A stretch of 37,350 bases of DNA from a virus. The stretch spans positions 1-37,350 of the IMG/VR virus record IMGVR_UViG_3300010399_000060. The stretch is one strand, 5' to 3'. The notes beneath the pieces are model-generated. The model made no database searches. It was given only the letters and a program-made list of their open reading frames with translations, and was not told the origin of the DNA. Positions 1,965 to 37,350 of this stretch are shown here, piece after piece (position 1 is the stretch's first letter; each line of letters starts with the position of its first letter). The position numbers were made by a program, and so were the translations under genes.

Positions 1965-2753
1965 TCAGTCCTGCTGGTCGCCTGGGATGGACGCGATCTT
2001 GCGCAGCAGCTCGGCGTGACACTGTGCGACCTGCTCGCCGTCCCATTCGACCATCCGCCCTGGGAAATTCTGAAGCTTGGCCCAGTTGTTGGCGTAGCGG
2101 AGTAGTGCGAGCTCGTAGCGCTGCTCTTGTTCCTTGACCCACGCGAACAGAGCCTTGCCCGTTCGCGGTGGTCCAGACGCGCGCTCGGTAGTCGCCGTGC
2201 CGTTAGGCTTCCGGGCCGGGGCGTTGCTCGGGTCGCTCGCGCCGGGCCAGTCGTGCCGTTGCTTGCCGTTGCCGTTGACGTGGCCATTCGCGTGCCCGTT
2301 GGCGGGGGGCGCGGCCGGGACCGGGCGACGTTCGCGGTCCATCAGCTCGGCGACGGTGGCGGGCTCGGGACACGGCGGCGGTCCAAAGTAGGGCACTCCG
2401 TCGCGGTAGAGGTAGCGACCGACGCCGAACTTCACGGCCGCGCGCTTGAAGGCGTCGGAATAGCCGCTCTTGTCGTCGTCGCCAGAATCGGACATCCCGG
2501 CGTAGCCCCCGGCGTCACACTTGGTCAGTGTCGTCTCGTTCGGCAAGCGGATCGTCAGCCGGCAGAGCACGCTGTTCTCGCTGGGCACGTACTCATCCCA
2601 CCAGCTCTCGGGGCCGAGCACGTTATCCAGGCGGTTCATCACCGTGCGTGCGGTGACGTAGTGGAGCTGCCTTCCGCCTTGCGGCCGGTCTTTCACTTCC
2701 TCGGGTTCGAAGGGCGCGGCGAGGGCCGCGAAGAGTTCAGGATGCCTGGTCAT
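1965..2753 (-). CDS. Rad52/Rad22-type single-strand annealing protein
   Basis: 262 residues. Phage annealing proteins of this type pair complementary single strands during recombination-dependent replication and repair. ATG 2753 is chosen because GGAG lies 7 nt upstream; the Met at 2795 lacks a ribosome site. The Rad52-like core spans about residues 1-125: LHYVTARTVMNRLD, a GPESWWDEYVP segment, then DAGGYAGMSDSG leading into SDAFKRAAVKFGVGRYLY, the last being a hallmark of the Rad52/Rad22 family. A low-complexity linker with HANGHVNGN follows, then a C-terminal helical region. It overlaps the upstream small gene by 17 nt. No nuclease partner is evident. Confidence 0.88.
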   Translation of the reverse strand: MTRHPELFAALAAPFEPEEVKDRPQGGRQLHYVTARTVMNRLDNVLGPESWWDEYVPSENSVLCRLTIRLPNETTLTKCDAGGYAGMSDSGDDDKSGYSDAFKRAAVKFGVGRYLYRDGVPYFGPPPCPEPATVAELMDRERRPVPAAPPANGHANGHVNGNGKQRHDWPGASDPSNAPARKPNGTATTERASGPPRTGKALFAWVKEQEQRYELALLRYANNWAKLQNFPGRMVEWDGEQVAQCHAELLRKIASIPGDQQD

Positions 2754-2964
2754 GTCGATGCTCCATGTGAGATAGGGTCCGCGAATCCTGCTCATCCTCG
2801 ATAGCGTCGATCAGCCGGGCGACCCACATCCGGGTGGACTCCCAGCTCTCTTTGGTCTCGTCGTGGGGCCGCTCAGTGAGCATCGCGCGTTGCAGGTCGC
2901 GGTGCCAGCTCGCGAGCTTGCGATCGCTCGCGTTGCGGAGGGCCTTGCGGTTGATGCCATCCAT
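2737..2964 (-). CDS. Small helical hypothetical protein
   Basis: 75 residues from ATG 2964, which has GGAG 8 nt upstream. An upstream in-frame ATG at 2988 has no such site. Strongly helical and charged (KALRNASDRKLASWHRDLQR, then SWESTRMWVARLIDAIEDEQ). The 3' end overlaps the Rad52-like gene by 17 nt, suggesting coupled translation. Function unknown; it could be a partner of the annealing protein by position only. Confidence 0.6.
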   Translation of the reverse strand: MDGINRKALRNASDRKLASWHRDLQRAMLTERPHDETKESWESTRMWVARLIDAIEDEQDSRTLSHMEHRHDQAS

Positions 2965-6374: not shown

Positions 6375-7361
6375 TCATTCCTCGGCCAGAATCTTACGTA
6401 CTTTGCTTGCTTTGTCTTCAAGGTTGTCAATATAGACTTGGGTAGTCGTGGCGGAACGGTGCCGCGCATGAGCCTGAGTTGCGAACACGTCGCCTGCGCT
6501 CAGCTCCGCAAAGTGTGTGATCGACTGGTGACGGATTCCGTGGGGAGTGGGTAGCTTGCCTTTGATCCCCGCGGCGCGACCGATCGACTTCACCAGCTCG
6601 TAGATCGCGTTGCCGCTGAGTCGAGCCACTTCATCGGCCGCATGATCGCATCGGATGAAGAGCGGCCCGGGTTCCCGGCCGCGGACCTCGAGCCACGCTT
6701 CAAGCGCAGCACACGTCGGCGCTCCGACCACGTCGAGCAGCTCGCGATCGCCGCGGCCCTTGCCCATGATCGAAAGCCGCGCGGTCTCCGGATCCCAATG
6801 CGACACGTCGAGCTCGACAACCTCGGCGCGGCGCAAGCCCAGGTCGTAGAGCAACCGCAGAATGGCATAGTCACGCCGGCCCTGGTCTGTTCGAGCTGAC
6901 ACCTTGCGCGCGGCGGCTTCCATTCGCAACCAGCCCGACCGGCCCGGCCCGCGCGTATCACGATAGCTCTGTCCTTTCACGCTCTCGACTTCGATCAGCC
7001 AATCAATCACACCCATACGACGAGCCAGCTTCACAAGTCGGCCGAGCGTCGAGAGCTTTCGGTTGATCGTCGCTGGTGCCTGCCTGCGCTGTAGCATCTC
7101 GGCCTTGTAGCGCGTCACCCACGCGTTGCACTGACCGCTGCCGTCACCGAGCAGGGCGACCACGGCCGCGGCCGGCTCGGTGAAATTCATGCTCCTGGCC
7201 AGGTCGCGAATGTCGCTGATGCGACCTCGGCGGGTCGTTGGCTTCGTGGCGTCGGCCAGGAGCGCGGCGTACATATCCCAGAGCGACACTTTGGGAAAGC
7301 TGCTAACAGCGGGGATATCAGCAGAATCGGAGCGAGATAGGGGAATCAGGTCGTTGCTCAC
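6375..7361 (-). CDS. Tyrosine recombinase, second copy (Xer/integrase family)
   Basis: 328 residues from GTG 7361, chosen for GGAG 10 nt upstream and a promoter behind it; an ATG at 7448 would add 29 residues reaching over the promoter. The N-terminal half is a SAM-like core-binding region (PATINRKLSTLGRLVKLARR). The catalytic half shows Arg in GLRRAE (about 177), Lys in MGKGR (about 202), HGIR (274-277), the third-box HARHRS (298-302) and Tyr 310 in TTTQVYID, followed by a short tail, as in Xer-like enzymes. It shares no close stretch with the recombinase at 33668-34591. Roles could be excision, dimer resolution or inversion at the flanking dyads. Confidence 0.88.
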   Translation of the reverse strand: MSNDLIPLSRSDSADIPAVSSFPKVSLWDMYAALLADATKPTTRRGRISDIRDLARSMNFTEPAAAVVALLGDGSGQCNAWVTRYKAEMLQRRQAPATINRKLSTLGRLVKLARRMGVIDWLIEVESVKGQSYRDTRGPGRSGWLRMEAAARKVSARTDQGRRDYAILRLLYDLGLRRAEVVELDVSHWDPETARLSIMGKGRGDRELLDVVGAPTCAALEAWLEVRGREPGPLFIRCDHAADEVARLSGNAIYELVKSIGRAAGIKGKLPTPHGIRHQSITHFAELSAGDVFATQAHARHRSATTTQVYIDNLEDKASKVRKILAEE

Positions 7362-7388
7362 GATAGTGTGTCTCCGTATATTGGGTGG

Positions 7389-7416
7389 GGCTGTGACAAT
7401 GTTGATTATCACAGCC
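7389..7416. promoter_or_regulatory. 12-4-12 dyad over the recombinase promoter
   Basis: ggctgtgacaat-gttg-attatcacagcc: arms pair at 11 of 12 positions. The dyad covers the candidate -10 of the recombinase promoter, so a bound dimer would block it. The left arm is the same 12-mer as at 6315-6326. Confidence 0.6.
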
Positions 7417-7433
7417 AGGAGTCGAGCCGACAA
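7405..7433 (-). promoter_or_regulatory. Candidate promoter of the second recombinase
   Basis: Minus strand: TTGTCG (7433-7428), 17-nt spacer, GATAAT (7410-7405) preceded by TGT, about 45 nt upstream of GTG 7361. Confidence 0.55.
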
Positions 7434-7474
7434 CCGGCCCGGCGTCACTTCTTACGATCCTGTCAAAATGGATT

Positions 7475-7484: not shown

Positions 7485-7552
7485 GATGTGGCAAATTGGG
7501 ATATTAAGTAGATACATCGCGAGCAAGCACCTTCGAACATCGGGGTACGATC

Positions 7553-8104
7553 ATGACGGGCGTGCGCGGTTTGACGAACGAGCAGCGCGCGCTGGCCGAA
7601 CGGTATATCCCGCTCGCGCTCAAGCTCGCCTCACGCTTCGAGGGACGCTCCACATCGATCGACCCGGAGGACTTGCAGCAGGTCGCACTCACCGCGCTCT
7701 GTGAGGCCGCGGCCCGGTTCAGTCCCGAACGGGGCACATCACCGGCTCAGTTCTTTGGACCAGCGATCAAGGGGGCTCTCTCTGATTATGTGAGAGCTTC
7801 ATTCACTGACCGGATCCGGCTCTCGGACCGGCTGAGCGTGCTCGTCGAAAGCCCGTGCAACAACGTCGACGCCGTGGACTCTGCTGACGCGTTCGCCGCT
7901 CTCATCGAATCGGCCCCTCCTAAATATCAAGACTTGCTCTGGCTCGTCTTCGCTGTCGGCCTGACGCAAGCCGAGGTCGCCGGCAGGTTCGGGGTCACTC
8001 AACCTTACATCGCCAAGCTCTTACGTGAAGCGCTCATGTGTCTCGCGGGCGAGGCCGTTGTGCGTTATCACCCTGGATTCTTCCAACGCGCCAAGCATGC
8101 CTAG
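7553..8104 (+). CDS. Phage-encoded sigma-70-family RNA polymerase sigma factor
   Basis: 183 residues. Region 2 (about 8-85) is clear: ALAERYIPLALKLASRFEG, DPEDLQQVALTALCEAAARF, SPERG, FGPAIKGALSDYVRA, the -10 recognition and core-binding helices. Region 4 (about 120-175) has a helix-turn-helix in GLTQAEVAGRFGVTQPYIAK. There is no region 1.1 and region 3 is short, so it is a small alternative sigma. Placed at the head of the rightward block that runs into the structural genes, it probably directs host polymerase to late promoters. Start at ATG 7553 has a weak ribosome site. The 3' end overlaps the next gene by 8 nt. Confidence 0.88.
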   Translation: MTGVRGLTNEQRALAERYIPLALKLASRFEGRSTSIDPEDLQQVALTALCEAAARFSPERGTSPAQFFGPAIKGALSDYVRASFTDRIRLSDRLSVLVESPCNNVDAVDSADAFAALIESAPPKYQDLLWLVFAVGLTQAEVAGRFGVTQPYIAKLLREALMCLAGEAVVRYHPGFFQRAKHA

Positions 8105-14242: not shown

Positions 14243-14625
14243 CCACGGAACCGCAGATCGACAGCAGCCAGGTGCTGAACGCCCTGGCCGGCGCAGCCAA
14301 GAGGCACCGGCCCCTGGACGTGATCCAGGAGGACCTGGACGAAGCCAAGGCAGAGCATCGCAAGCTCATGCCCCTGGTCGAGTCCGAGCGGCACAAGGAA
14401 GCCCGGCAGAAGGAGCGGATTCAGCGGGCCGAGCTGAAATGGAAAGTCGAGAATCCCGACGATCCGTTTGACGCCGACGCGTTCAGCCCTCCGCTCAGGC
14501 CCTACAAGCCTGACCAGGACCTCTACCGTCGCTTCCACGCAATCCACTACACCATCGCGGACCGTGAGCGTGAGCTGGCGGACGCACAGAAGGCGCGAGC
14601 GCTGGGAGTGAGCTCCAATGAGTGA
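14239..14625 (+). CDS. Helical hypothetical protein between portal and scaffold
   Basis: 128 residues. GTG 14239 overlaps the portal stop. Highly charged and helical (VIQEDLDEAKAEHRKLMPLV, ESERHKEARQKERIQRAELK), with a Pro-rich middle (DADAFSPPLRPYKPDQ). The 3' end overlaps the scaffold start by 8 nt. Probably a head-assembly accessory by position. No motif. Confidence 0.65.
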   Translation: MTTEPQIDSSQVLNALAGAAKRHRPLDVIQEDLDEAKAEHRKLMPLVESERHKEARQKERIQRAELKWKVENPDDPFDADAFSPPLRPYKPDQDLYRRFHAIHYTIADRERELADAQKARALGVSSNE

Positions 14626-31464: not shown

Positions 31465-31767
31465 TCAGTGGCCGAGCTGCCTCACCGCACGCACGGCGAG
31501 ACGGCCCAGCTCGGTCAGCCGGTAGGTCCCCGACTTCGAATAGCTCTCGACCAGGTCGACGCTGGCGAACTCGGCGAGGCACATCACCACCTCGCGTTCA
31601 GTGAGGTCCGACTCGAGCGCGCAGATCTCCCGCGCGCTCGAGGGTCGGACGGCTACCCGACGTAGCACCTTGAGCGCTTCGGGGCAGGCCAGGGCGGATA
31701 GCACACTGGCGGTTTGCCAGAGCTGCTCGTCCTGCTCGGGGGGTGGGTCGGTTCGTTGCAGAGACAC
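31465..31767 (-). CDS. ArsR-like winged-helix regulator
   Basis: 100 residues. GTG 31767 with AGGAGG at ideal 6-nt spacing. Residues about 20-90 read as a winged helix: SVLSALACPEALKVLRRVA, SSAREICALESDLTEREVVM, CLAEFASVDLVESYSKSGTY, RLTELGRLA, the order of helices and wing seen in ArsR/MarR-type proteins. No metal-binding Cys pair. A likely regulator in the lysogeny-control region. Confidence 0.72.
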   Translation of the reverse strand: MSLQRTDPPPEQDEQLWQTASVLSALACPEALKVLRRVAVRPSSAREICALESDLTEREVVMCLAEFASVDLVESYSKSGTYRLTELGRLAVRAVRQLGH

Positions 31768-33146: not shown

Positions 33147-33557
33147 ATGAGCGATCCGGATGGGAGGAGACCGAGGCGAGTAAGGACTGAGGCGAGCGAG
33201 ACACAAGAGCCCCCTGCCCTCAGCGATCCGTCTCCGGATGGGACTGAGACACTGGCGGTCGATCCCACGGAGACTCAGGCGAACGAGATGAGGAAGCGGC
33301 CAAGGGCCAAGAAGCCAGAGCTTCCGACCGTCCAGGCGAAGGTGGGAGCGAAGATGAAGGTGTCGGTGTGGCTGCCGGCCAAGGTCGTATGGCAGCTCAG
33401 ACACCACATGGCCGATCAACCCGGTGTCACGGAAGGACAGGTGATCGCGCCCTTGCTCGAACAATACCTCGGTGGGTTCGACTATCCGAAGCGGCCGGAT
33501 TGGTTGCTGGCGATCCTGAAAGGTGAGAACCCCGTACAAGATACATCGGCAGCTTAG
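33147..33557 (+). CDS. RHH-type DNA-binding protein with a long charged arm
   Basis: 136 residues, read opposite to its neighbours. ATG 33147 with AAGGAG at 6 nt. A disordered, Pro/Glu/Thr-rich arm at 1-55 (ASETQEPPALSDPSPDGTET) is followed by a ribbon-helix-helix-like core at about 69-110 (MKVSVWLPAKVVWQLRHHMA, DQPGVTEGQVIAPLLEQYLG). Long-armed RHH proteins include ParG-like partition and CopG-like repressors. Near attP and the palindrome, a regulator or centromere binder is plausible (inference). Confidence 0.68.
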   Translation: MSDPDGRRPRRVRTEASETQEPPALSDPSPDGTETLAVDPTETQANEMRKRPRAKKPELPTVQAKVGAKMKVSVWLPAKVVWQLRHHMADQPGVTEGQVIAPLLEQYLGGFDYPKRPDWLLAILKGENPVQDTSAA

Positions 33558-33667: not shown

Positions 33668-34591
33668 TCAGGCTCGCGGTTCGAACCCGACCCCCTGAAT
33701 CAGCTCGCGGACACGAGCCGGGCGGCCGGCATGCAGATAGCCCTCTGTCGTCCGCAGGCTGGCGTGTCCCATGACTTGCTGCACGACCCAAGAGGGTAGA
33801 TTCCACTCCGTCAGCGCGAAGGTGCCGAACGCATGCCGCAAGCTGTGGAACGTGACATGCTCGATCCCCACTTCGCGGGCCGCAGCCTGTAGCCGTCCGA
33901 GCGGCCTCCCGGCGTGCGAACCTCCATCCCACGGCCCGACGCGCTTGATGCCGGGAAAGAGCCACGTCGGCCCGGCGAGCGGCCTCCAATCGCGGAGCAC
34001 GGCCGAGAGTACGGCGGGCAGCGGAATGACTCTCGCGGACCCCAGCGTCTTGGTCCGCTTCCGCTTCTGACGCAGCGGATCTACCGCGAACGTCTCGCAT
34101 GGCTCGTCGAGGTCGCTCAGATGGGCGTAGGTTGCCTCTCTGAGCCTCGGCCCGACGTACGTCGCGAGCCATGCCAGGGCGCTCAGTCGTCGCCCCTCCC
34201 AGTCCGTCTTCGCGGCCAGGTGGGCGAGCAGCTCCGCGGCCTGGTCGTACGTCGGCGGGACGTTCTTCCGCATCGGGGTCGCCGGCAGCCGGACGCGACG
34301 CCAGGACGGATGGCGCTCGAGGTACCCCTCCTCTATCGCGTAGGTGCAGATGGCCTGGGCGGCAGATAGATAGCCGTTGATCGTGTTGTGATTCGTCGTG
34401 ACGTTGACCTTCAACCAGGTCACGTAATCGGTCATCAGACCGGTCGTCAGATCGGCCGTCGACTTGCAGCCGAGTCCCCCGAGCTGGCGGAGCACCATCG
34501 TCACCCGGTTGAGGGTGGCGGGTGAATATCGGTAGCCTGAGTAGATCTTGACGACTGACGGCACAAACTTCGCGTAAGGCACGGGCTTCAT
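33668..34591 (-). CDS. int: Phage integrase (tyrosine recombinase)
   Basis: 307 residues. ATG 34591 has AAGGAG at 8 nt; an upstream Met at 34621 lacks it. A SAM-like core-binding domain at about 5-100 (PATLNRVTMVLRQLGGLGC, TINGYLSAAQAICTYAIEEG) is followed by the catalytic domain: Arg 149 in VGPRLREA, Arg/Lys basic turn KRKRTKTLG, HSLRH at 249-253, GHAS (His 276), Tyr 285 in TTEGYLHA. The active-site set is complete. It would insert the phage at the tRNA-Ala attP core lying 116 bp upstream of the gene (34707-34748). The C-terminal tail reads GVGFEPRA. Confidence 0.92.
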   Translation of the reverse strand: MKPVPYAKFVPSVVKIYSGYRYSPATLNRVTMVLRQLGGLGCKSTADLTTGLMTDYVTWLKVNVTTNHNTINGYLSAAQAICTYAIEEGYLERHPSWRRVRLPATPMRKNVPPTYDQAAELLAHLAAKTDWEGRRLSALAWLATYVGPRLREATYAHLSDLDEPCETFAVDPLRQKRKRTKTLGSARVIPLPAVLSAVLRDWRPLAGPTWLFPGIKRVGPWDGGSHAGRPLGRLQAAAREVGIEHVTFHSLRHAFGTFALTEWNLPSWVVQQVMGHASLRTTEGYLHAGRPARVRELIQGVGFEPRA

Positions 34592-34634
34592 ATCCAAGTC
34601 TCCTTGTGGAAAGCGTACCACTGGGGGGACTTGA

Positions 34635-34680: not shown

Positions 34681-34706
34681 CGACCCATCAACCTTGAATC
34701 AGATGA

Positions 34707-34748
34707 TTCGCAATGCTGAGGTTGAGGGTTCGATCCCCTTCCGCTCCA
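34707..34748 (+). other. attP: attP core: 3' half of tRNA-Ala(CGC)
   Basis: Reading 5' to 3' this is anticodon loop TTCGCAA (anticodon CGC), stem half TGCTG, variable AGGTT, T-arm GAGGG-TTCGATC-CCCTT (pairs), acceptor half CCGCTCC, discriminator A. T at position 70 fits the G3-U70 identity pair of tRNA-Ala. The 5' half is missing: upstream sequence does not give the CAGCA complement of TGCTG, so identity starts in the anticodon loop. This is the classic layout for an integrase that restores the 3' end of the target tRNA gene. CCA is not encoded here. Confidence 0.85.
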
Positions 34749-34750
34749 AT

Positions 34751-34768
34751 GCGGGGTTAAGGCCCCGC
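34751..34768 (+). other. Short hairpin just after the attP core
   Basis: GCGGGG-ttaagg-CCCCGC. No T-tract. Probably part of the recombination site context; could be a weak terminator after the phage-borne tRNA half. Confidence 0.3.
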
Positions 34769-34837: not shown

Positions 34838-34882
34838 TCCTTTCTGGATTCACCGGCCTTCGGGGGAACTTGACCGGGACCC
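34838..34882 (-). promoter_or_regulatory. Leader element copy A (upstream of the integrase region)
   Basis: Minus strand: GGGTCCCGGTCAAGTTCCC, 13 variable nt, AATCCAGAAAGGA. The same 45-bp arrangement occurs at 37042-37086. AGAAAGGA is a ribosome site, 5 nt before an ATG at 34832. The conserved 19-mer sits mostly in the loop of a hairpin with perfect 12-bp arms (34852-34863 with 34881-34892). Confidence 0.75.
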
Positions 34883-34899
34883 GAAGGCCGGTCTTTTTT
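34852..34899 (+). terminator. 12-bp hairpin with T6 (plus)
   Basis: ACCGGCCTTCGG pairs with CCGAAGGCCGGT over 12 bp, 17-nt loop, then cTTTTTT at 34893-34899. A strong rho-independent terminator by sequence for plus-strand transcripts leaving attP, while its minus strand is the leader element copy A. Confidence 0.7.
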
Positions 34900-34900
34900 C

Positions 34901-35166
34901 GCGCGCACGCATTCGGCTCAGAGCGCGCACGCATTCTTCGAAAAAAGGTCGAATTCGTGCGCTCGAAAGCGTTGTGACGAAAGGGGTTAACAGCGCGCAC
35001 GAATTCCAAAGTTGGCCACGCGCCCGCGTGCGTGCGCCCGCACGCGTAGCAAAGTGGCGAATTCGTGCGCGCTGTTAAAGTCATGTCCCGTAAGGGGTTC
35101 GAGCGCACGAATTCGCCGTATTTTCGGAGAATGCGTGCGCGCTCCGCAAAGTCGCCCGTGCGCGTC
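34901..35166. repeat. Nested palindrome of seven iteron-like motifs (candidate origin)
   Basis: Motif GCGCGCACG[AC]ATTC (or GAGCGCACGAATTC) occurs at 34901, 34923, 34951(-), 34993, 35059(-), 35101 and 35129(-), each 14 bp. Three longer pairs are mirror images about one centre (35032.5): 34921-34937 with 35128-35144, 34950-34967 with 35098-35115, 34987-35006 with 35059-35078, all perfect. A degenerate eighth motif lies near 35156. It abuts the RepA-like gene. Best reading: replication origin or partition site; arm sites for the nearby integrase are an alternative. Confidence 0.85.
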
Positions 35167-35209: not shown

Positions 35210-36529
35210 TTACTCGTCTCCCTCCGCGTGCGCGCTCTGCGCATCATAAATTCCCAGGTCGGGACGGAGACGCAGTTGCTTCGTGTGGCCGTCGCCCGTG
35301 TCGCGCATCTGGATCGACCCGTTCATGCGTTTGAGGACGCGGTGAACGGTCCCACGGGACGCCTTGTACTCATCCTTGGCTTCCGACTCGATGTCGGGGA
35401 GATCGACCCAGATACCCCCCTCCAGGCGTGCTTCGATCATTCGCCTCACCCTGGCGCCCTTGTCGTCCTTGGGTCCCGGTTTCCCGTCCCCCTCGGTGAG
35501 GAGCTTGAACAGCCGCCGGTTCACCTCCTCGGCACTCATGGGCACCGGTTCCGGGTCCCAGCAAAGTCGCCCGCCGGTGTAGCCGACTGCGAGGCCGGTC
35601 ATGACCGCGTCATCGGGGTTCTTCTTGATCAGGCTCATGAGGCGGCGCCTGGGGTCGCGTGGGTCCGGAGAGAAGAACCAAACCATGCGCGACTTGTTCA
35701 CGAAAGCGGCGGCGCCCTGAATCCTGGCTTGAATGCTGGCGCTCATCTGTTTGGTCAGGTGAGCCACCATCACGATCGCGAGCTCCAGTTCGTCGGCCAG
35801 CTTCACCAACGGCGTGAGCAGACGTTGCACTTCGTCGTCTTTGTGGGAATCGGCCCCATGGAGATAGGCTCCGATGGGGTCGATCATCACAAGCCGGACG
35901 TCGCCGAGCTCGCGTACGAAGTCGGTCAGAACGGGGATGTCTCGAGCGAGCGAGAATTGCTCCTCAACGTCCGGACCGGCATCGATCGCGTCCAGGATGT
36001 GCACCATCCGCGTGTCGGCGCCGAAGCGGTCATAGCGCGGCCGGATGTCAGTGGCGGCGTTCTCCTCGGCACTGAGGATCACGACACGTCCCGTCTCCAC
36101 TGGCTCATCGGGGCGGTCGGGCCAGCATCCGCCCGTCGTGACGGTGGCGGCGAGCATGCCCGTCAGAGTTGACTTGCCCGCGCCTCCATCGCCGGCAATC
36201 AGGGAGATTGTCCGCAACGGGATTCGGCCTTGCCAAAGCCATTCGTATTCCTCGGATTCGACATCGGCCAGGCAGCGCGACTTGACCCGGCGTTTATACC
36301 GGGCCTCCTCTCGAATCCGCTCTTCCGCAGCGCGTGTCGGGTTGCCCTGAACGGGCGGGTTCGGCTTGCGTTGGCGCTTCGACTGAGGGGGCTCCTCGTC
36401 GCGAAGGATGCCGGCCTCCATCAGCTTCACTCGGATCTGCATCCGGTAAAGCGCGGTGCCTTGCTTGTGCTCCAGGTCGTAGAGCAGCGCGGCGATTTCG
36501 TCTCTTGTCAGCTCGGGAGAATGGCTCAA
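35210..36529 (-). CDS. RepA-like replication ATPase/helicase
   Basis: 439 residues. TTG start 36529 overlaps the upstream stop (TTGA). RecA-fold ATPase core: Walker A GDGGAGKST at about 113-121, ILSAEENAATDIRPRYDRFG, Walker B-like VRLVMIDPIGAYLHG (Asp 217), and a VMVAHLTKQ motif, the set seen in plasmid RepA and phage replicative helicases. The C-terminal region (about 355-430) looks like a small winged helix (GTVHRVLKRMNGS). The gene ends 45 bp from the palindromic motif array. No primase or polymerase is visible, so host enzymes are presumably recruited. Confidence 0.85.
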   Translation of the reverse strand: MSHSPELTRDEIAALLYDLEHKQGTALYRMQIRVKLMEAGILRDEEPPQSKRQRKPNPPVQGNPTRAAEERIREEARYKRRVKSRCLADVESEEYEWLWQGRIPLRTISLIAGDGGAGKSTLTGMLAATVTTGGCWPDRPDEPVETGRVVILSAEENAATDIRPRYDRFGADTRMVHILDAIDAGPDVEEQFSLARDIPVLTDFVRELGDVRLVMIDPIGAYLHGADSHKDDEVQRLLTPLVKLADELELAIVMVAHLTKQMSASIQARIQGAAAFVNKSRMVWFFSPDPRDPRRRLMSLIKKNPDDAVMTGLAVGYTGGRLCWDPEPVPMSAEEVNRRLFKLLTEGDGKPGPKDDKGARVRRMIEARLEGGIWVDLPDIESEAKDEYKASRGTVHRVLKRMNGSIQMRDTGDGHTKQLRLRPDLGIYDAQSAHAEGDE

Positions 36530-36825
36530 CGGTCACCCCCCCCCAGCGTGATCTGGATCGAAACGCCGTCGGTCCACTCGAACCGGCTGAAATATCCGCC
36601 GGCCCAGAGGGCGCCGAGAGCGAGACGAAGGGAGCGTCGCGTGAGCTCCAGTGCGTTGGCGAGGTCTTCCTCGGCCATGATGACCACGCCGTCCTCATCG
36701 GCCAGGCCGACGAGCATCGCGGCGATCACCGCCTTTTCGGTGGAGTCGAGTCGTCGGTCTTTCATGATCCGTTTCAACGTGGTGATGGGAAGCGGTCGGG
36801 CCTCCGCGCGTGCCTTGGCGATCAA
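36526..36825 (-). CDS. Helix-turn-helix replication-operon protein
   Basis: 99 residues. TTG start 36825 with AAGGAGG at 6 nt, overlapping the previous stop (TTGA). Residues about 25-80: LDSTEKAVIAAMLVGLADED, AEEDLANALELTRRSLRLAL, GALWAGGYF reads as a winged-helix DNA-binding domain. Coupled translation with the ATPase suggests an initiator that recognises the motif array and loads the helicase. This is an inference; no named family is identified. Confidence 0.7.
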   Translation of the reverse strand: MIAKARAEARPLPITTLKRIMKDRRLDSTEKAVIAAMLVGLADEDGVVIMAEEDLANALELTRRSLRLALGALWAGGYFSRFEWTDGVSIQITLGGGDR

Positions 36826-37034
36826 CGGGCACCTCCTTCTCGGCGCTCGAAGTCGGGCAGCTCGCGGGACGGGACGTAGCGGTACTGATCGGTCCAGGCC
36901 GGCCAGTGAACGGCGGGGCACTCGGGAGGCAGGGTGTTGAGTTGAGTGCCGGTGTTGGGGTAGGATGTGCGTCGCGATTGCTGGCTGCGCGCACGCGGGC
37001 TCGCCGGCCCGCCAGGGGCGTGTTTCACGGACAT
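36822..37034 (-). CDS. Small basic Pro-rich protein, first of the replication operon
   Basis: 70 residues. ATG 37034 with AAAGGA at 7 nt, directly behind leader element copy B. MSVKHAPGGPASPRARSQQS, then PPECPAVHWPAWTDQYRYVP. Probably mostly disordered. No family recognised. It may be a short leader protein whose translation sets the level of the coupled downstream genes. Confidence 0.55.
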   Translation of the reverse strand: MSVKHAPGGPASPRARSQQSRRTSYPNTGTQLNTLPPECPAVHWPAWTDQYRYVPSRELPDFERREGGAR

Positions 37035-37041
37035 CGGAAGT

Positions 37042-37086
37042 TCCTTTCTGGATTGGCCGATCGGTGCGGGAACTTGACCGGGACCC
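37042..37086 (-). promoter_or_regulatory. Leader element copy B (replication operon)
   Basis: Minus strand: GGGTCCCGGTCAAGTTCCC, 13 variable nt, AATCCAGAAAGGA, then ATG 37034 8 nt on. Same order and spacing as copy A. The flanks pair as a hairpin with a bulge (CGGG with CCCG, then TCGG with CCGA), different in sequence from copy A but still pairing. Confidence 0.7.
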
Positions 37087-37128
37087 GCCGACAGGCATTT
37101 CCAAGGGGCAAGTCTAGCGGTTAAGCGG

Positions 37129-37350
37129 TCATCTCACAACGGCATCGATCTGGGTCCCTCCATCACCGCCGGATCCCTCCGAGCCGACAGCCAACATCGC
37201 GTCCAGGCAGTCGAGCGCGAGCTTCCAACCAGCGGCCTCAGCGGCCCAACCAGCGGCCCAACCAGCGGCCTCAGCGGCCCGACCAGCGGCCCGACCAGCG
37301 GCCTCAGCGGCCCAACCAGCGGCCCAACCAGCGGCCTCAGCGGCCCAACC
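37129..37350 (-). CDS. Repeat-tailed phage protein, 3' part (gene begins at 567)
   Basis: This open frame enters at the right edge on the minus strand and ends at TGA 37131-37129. It continues the AAGW/AAEAAG repeat seen at the left edge, then leaves the repeat into a short unique tail (WKLALDCLDAMLAVGS...). Window length is divisible by 3, so a direct end-to-start join keeps the frame. Overlapping the 3-nt 'acc' shared by both ends would also keep it. The gene is therefore one continuous reading frame on a circular or circularly permuted molecule. True repeat number at the junction is uncertain. Confidence 0.75.
   Translation of the reverse strand, partial: GWAAEAAGWAAGWAAEAAGRAAGRAAEAAGWAAGWAAEAAGWKLALDCLDAMLAVGSEGSGGDGGTQIDAVVR
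37227..37350. repeat. GC-rich coding minisatellite, right part
   Basis: Same 12-nt and 21-nt units as at 1-190, in the same orientation and frame, with very little divergence between copies. Near identity points to recent expansion or to uncertain copy number in assembly. Confidence 0.85.

What the first reader, a model, noticed from the sequence alone, without database searches (positions are those of the whole stretch)
34901..35166. A 224-bp nested palindrome built from seven iteron-like motifs sharing one centre
Three separate perfect inverted pairs (17, 18 and 20 bp) have exactly the same centre at 35032.5 (sums of mirrored coordinates are all 70065), and each arm carries a copy of a 14-bp motif GCGCGCACG[AC]ATTC. 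Seven copies are seen in alternating orientation. The stretches between motifs are not conserved, so selection is on motifs and symmetry. It lies 45 bp from the end of a RepA-like ATPase gene and 150 bp from attP. This is far more ordered than an ordinary iteron array and suggests an origin that can be extruded as a cruciform, or a site bound by a symmetric nucleoprotein complex.
Basis: partly seen in the sequence, partly recalled or inferred. Interest (0 to 1): 0.85.

Follow-up and report, generated by a model that had tools for sequence, protein, structure and literature searches.

The report
Mirror-symmetric iteron array, likely phage origin
Just behind a predicted replication ATPase gene of an uncultured temperate phage lie seven copies of a 12-letter DNA word, six of them in three exactly mirrored pairs; similar two-way repeat clusters sit in the same spot in some other phages and plasmids, so it is probably where the phage starts copying its DNA.

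Summary
The mirrored array is real and far beyond chance: three perfect inverted pairs (20, 18, 17 bp) share centre 35032.5, scoring 55 paired bases against at most 24 in 200 shuffles. Two corrections: only the 12-bp core GCGCACG[AC]ATTC is in all seven sites, and the DNA between motifs is also partly conserved between the arms, so this is an old inverted duplication whose motifs stayed perfect. The motif array is confined to this spot and absent from the relatives tested. Function is inferred from position. The array lies 66 bp 3' of an AAA_25 replication-type ATPase gene. Unrelated inverted-iteron arrays lie 3' of replication ATPase genes in a related phage (G006), in Corynebacterium plasmid pCG2, and in a Streptomyces plasmid plus three viral contigs; in these six loci the best exact mirror centre falls 89-184 bp past the gene (177 bp here). 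A Streptomyces relative keeps its array though it is about 4.7 kb from the gene. About as many AAA_25 loci lack such an array. Best reading: a SaPI-like replication origin bound by the Rep ATPase, or by the winged-helix protein before it, as two opposed assemblies (about 0.75). Integrase arm sites and a centromere fit worse. It is a new variant of a known kind, notable for exact concentricity.

The parts
34921..35144 (.). concentric inverted duplication (two 112-bp arms, centre 35032.5)
34903..34914 (+). iteron R0 GCGCACGCATTC, outside the symmetric block, 22 bp before A
34925..34936 (+). iteron A (pairs with A')
34951..34962 (-). iteron B (pairs with B')
34995..35006 (+). iteron C (pairs with C')
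35007..35058 (.). GC-rich centre; holds a degenerate copy 35026-35037 (2 mismatches); itself partly palindromic
35059..35070 (-). iteron C'
35103..35114 (+). iteron B'
35129..35140 (-). iteron A'
35210..36529 (-). replication-type ATPase (RecA/KaiC-fold AAA_25; C-terminal end aligns with other AAA_25 Rep C-termini and shows a weak winged-helix match)
36526..37104 (-). upstream ORF with a C-terminal winged-helix domain (residues about 107-190; moderate-confidence model); possible second initiator, true start probably internal
34852..34898 (+). intrinsic-terminator-like hairpin with T run between attachment core and array
34704..34754 (+). attachment core: 3' end of a tRNA gene, shared with relative G009
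33668..34621 (-). tyrosine integrase of XerC/D length

Best explanation
The array is the phage's replication origin. The AAA_25 ATPase (35210-36529), probably through its C-terminal winged-helix region, or the winged-helix protein encoded just before it, binds the asymmetric 12-14 bp iterons; because sites come in mirrored pairs, two opposed assemblies (perhaps two hexamers) form about 35032 and load helicase for bidirectional replication of the excised circle. Shown: array, symmetry, duplication with motif retention, gene neighbours, recurrence of inverted iteron arrays 3' of replication ATPases. Inferred: binding, which protein binds, hexamer loading, bidirectionality.
For: Adjacent AAA_25 protein matches phage primase/helicase and DNA helicase families and plasmid AAA ATPases, including one on 6.8-kb pCG2. 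Inverted iteron arrays of other sequence lie 3' of the replication ATPase in G006, pCG2, a Streptomyces plasmid and three viral contigs; in all six the best exact mirror centre of the locus is 89-184 bp past the stop codon. Iteron offsets from the stop codon are nearly the same in L039-L041, and S. chartreusis plasmid CP108844 keeps the same iterons although displaced about 4.7 kb from a Rep 85% identical to that of the Streptomyces plasmid. No motif at other promoters of the window. SaPI Rep helicases bind an iteron origin directly downstream of their gene through a C-terminal domain, apparently as two hexamers (PMC7581432).
Against: No binding or replication data. Other AAA_25 loci examined show no such array directly 3' of the gene (L033, L034, L037, L038, L044, L045, L046); two of the positive loci were noticed by their repeats. 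No clear AT-rich opening element: the centre is 80% GC. No close relative of the Rep was found, so conservation of this very array could not be tested. The Rep model was of low confidence.
Confidence: 0.75

Rival explanations
1. Operator or centromere: a dimeric DNA-binding protein, such as the ribbon-helix-helix-like product of 33147-33557 or the regulator at 31465-31767, binds the array to control lysogeny or partition.
For: Centromere arrays also use mirrored short sites; a TGCATGCAGT array lies near parA in a Streptomyces plasmid. 33147-33557 looks ribbon-helix-helix-like by eye.
Against: No ParA among the proteins scanned; no motif near those genes' own starts; the array sits behind, not before, the rep gene.
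Confidence: 0.12
2. Arm-type or accessory sites of the integrase/excisionase at attP.
For: The array lies about 150 bp from the tRNA-type attachment core, beside int.
Against: Sites only on one side of the core; int aligns end to end with XerC/D and has only about 30 residues before its core-binding region; G009 shares attachment core and a 47%-identical integrase but no motif.
Confidence: 0.06
3. No function of the symmetry: chance inverted duplication, a mobile palindromic repeat, or a structured RNA.
For: Arms are paralogous; the strand folds strongly.
Against: Motifs 36/36 paired while spacers fell to 55-63%; no copy elsewhere in window, plasmids or phages; no Rfam family.
Confidence: 0.07

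Closest known systems
SaPI-type origin (Rep initiator helicase with downstream iterons)
   Same: Iterons in two opposed sets directly 3' of the gene of a replication ATPase with a probable C-terminal DNA-binding domain
   Different: ATPase is AAA_25, not DUF927 or D5/Primase_Cterm; motif unrelated; centre GC-rich; pairs exactly concentric
pCG2 / Streptomyces NEAU-sy36-type AAA_25 plasmid replicons
   Same: AAA_25 ATPase followed within 200 bp by inverted iterons
   Different: Those ATPases are larger, with an extra N-terminal part; iterons unrelated; centres only nearly concentric; origins there also untested here
IncQ (RSF1010) replicon
   Same: RecA-fold ring ATPase as replication protein (own knowledge of RSF1010 RepA)
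   Different: IncQ uses a separate RepC on direct iterons; here sites are inverted
lambda O-type origin
   Same: Phage initiator with iterons beside or in its gene; relative G001 has 3 x 24-bp repeats inside its winged-helix-type gene
   Different: Here iterons are outside the gene and inverted

Membership tests
SaPI-type origin | iterons directly downstream of the rep gene | tested here: met
   array 66 bp past the gene end
SaPI-type origin | oppositely oriented iteron sets | tested here: met
SaPI-type origin | AT-rich stretch between the iteron sets (own knowledge of SaPI origins) | tested here: not met
   centre 80% GC
SaPI-type origin | Rep helicase of DUF927 or D5/Primase_Cterm family | tested here: not met
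   AAA_25; families as given
SaPI-type origin | Rep binds iterons and drives replication | not testable with these tools
   needs gel shift and replication assay
iteron plasmid origin (direct repeats, Rep_3 type) | tandem direct iterons | tested here: not met
   orientation + + - + - + -
AAA_25 rep plus 3' inverted iterons | AAA_25 protein | tested here: met
   9.4e-32
AAA_25 rep plus 3' inverted iterons | mirror centre within 200 bp past the stop codon | tested here: met
   177 bp; AAA_25 loci L035, L036, L039-L041 89-184 bp
integrase arm-type sites | sites on both sides of the core and an arm-binding domain | tested here: not met
ParABS-type centromere | ParA nearby | tested here: inconclusive
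   none among about 28 proteins scanned; record may be incomplete

The most novel reading that the evidence does not exclude
An origin in which iterons are arranged as exactly concentric mirror pairs, made by inverted duplication, so that two opposed Rep assemblies are set at fixed distances from one dyad; a stricter design than known SaPI-like or AAA_25 plasmid origins, in a GC-rich setting.
Probability: 0.35. Interest if true: 0.55.

Novelty: new variant of a known kind. Interest (0 to 1): 0.42.

Why it matters
It gives a concrete candidate origin for a group of uncultured temperate phages and points to a recurring but little-described replicon layout: an AAA_25 or DUF3987 replication ATPase followed by an inverted iteron array. 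Exact concentricity would make two-sided helicase loading directly testable.

Tried and rejected
Motif-pair scan of viral contigs: none; of genome contigs: three hits, each a lone motif pair without an array, at spacings unlike the window's, read as chance. Rep and integrase as single queries in viral contigs found nothing. Phage and plasmid BLAST with the array: none. ARAGORN's tmRNA call over the region is not backed by Rfam and is taken as spurious. G009's repeats at the same place are about 99-bp direct units with terminator-like ends, not inverted iterons. The k-mer measure separated arrays from background poorly; the mirror-centre scan was better. The Rep model was too poor for a fold search. 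L044 and L045 have mirror centres elsewhere (inside the gene; 1.6 kb away), not followed.

Full report
OBSERVATION. The window holds three perfect inverted pairs of 20, 18 and 17 bp about one centre, 35032.5. The 12-mer GCGCACG[AC]ATTC occurs exactly seven times in the window, all here; the 14-mer is exact at five. In a scan of every possible centre the real sequence gives 55 paired bases in runs of at least 7 and 86 of 120 paired positions; 200 dinucleotide shuffles give at most 24 and 60. No other centre in the window comes near.

ANATOMY. Motif centres are 22, 26, 44, 64, 44 and 26 bp apart (R0-A-B-C-C'-B'-A'). Partners share their variant letter and their flanks: 13-14 of 20 flanking bases against 2-7 for non-partners among the six mirrored sites. 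Motif positions pair 36/36, other positions 48/76; away from motifs 23/42. So the arms come from an inverted duplication whose spacers drifted while motifs were kept. The strand can fold strongly (-96.4 kcal/mol, z -15), as any such palindrome would; this is no evidence of extrusion in the cell.

SURROUNDINGS. On the minus strand: winged-helix ORF (36526-37104), AAA_25 ATPase (35210-36529), array, terminator-like hairpin, tRNA-type attachment core, integrase (33668-34621). The record is a phage with terminase, portal-like and tail tube matches. Terminase relatives share the order rad52 - replication gene - [att] - integrase where their contigs allow it: G009 and G001, G006 up to its contig end. 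G009 shares the attachment core and a 47%-identical integrase but has another replication gene and other repeats; G001 has three 24-bp repeats inside its winged-helix-type gene. The replication cassette is thus exchanged as a unit and the array is not part of the integration module. The shared layout also argues that the DNA right of the attachment core is phage, not host.

RECURRENCE. G006 has a DnaB_N/DUF3987 gene followed by 9-bp iterons (TGGCGCAAA) in both orientations. pCG2 and a Streptomyces plasmid, found as AAA_25 relatives, have inverted iterons 3' of that gene. Three viral contigs related to the latter show the same iterons at nearly the same offsets. In these six loci the best exact mirror centre lies 89-184 bp past the stop codon; here it is 177 bp. 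In CP108844 the same iterons sit at 14279-14475, about 4.7 kb from the rep gene. Denominator: seven other AAA_25 loci show no array directly 3' of the gene; some are lytic phages or truncated, non-replicon contexts. Two positives were noticed by eye before the scan, so the association is suggestive, not a blind test.

MECHANISM. Asymmetric 12-14 bp sites fit a winged-helix monomer; mirrored pairs fit two opposed assemblies. SaPI Rep helicases act so on iterons directly downstream of their gene, apparently as two hexamers (PMC7581432). Here the ATPase is of another family and the centre is GC-rich, so it works like, but is not a member of, that type. Which protein binds is open: the C-terminal region of the ATPase aligns with that of other AAA_25 Reps and has a weak GntR-type match; its structure model was poor.

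VERDICT. Real, strongly non-random, most likely a phage replication origin (0.75), a new variant of a known kind, with exact concentricity as its unusual trait.

Noticed in passing
window 6375-7448 (-): Second tyrosine recombinase gene, XerC/D-like, far from the attachment core.
   Followed up: partly
window 7553-8104 (+): Sigma-70 family (ECF-like) factor in a phage record.
   Followed up: no
window 37192-37350: GC-rich short tandem repeats at the contig end (GWAAEAAGWAAG when read as protein); may be where assembly stopped.
   Followed up: no
L024 14662-14920 (G009): Three about 99-bp direct repeats with terminator-like hairpins at the place of the array.
   Followed up: partly
window 1965-2795 (-): Rad52-type recombinase, conserved beside the replication module in several relatives.
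   Followed up: partly
L035 about 7500-8000: TGCATGCAGT array near a parA gene of a Streptomyces plasmid, a likely centromere.
   Followed up: no
L045 5583-6680: Strong symmetric repeat cluster in a gap 1.4-1.6 kb 3' of an AAA_25 gene on a Campylobacter coli plasmid.
   Followed up: no
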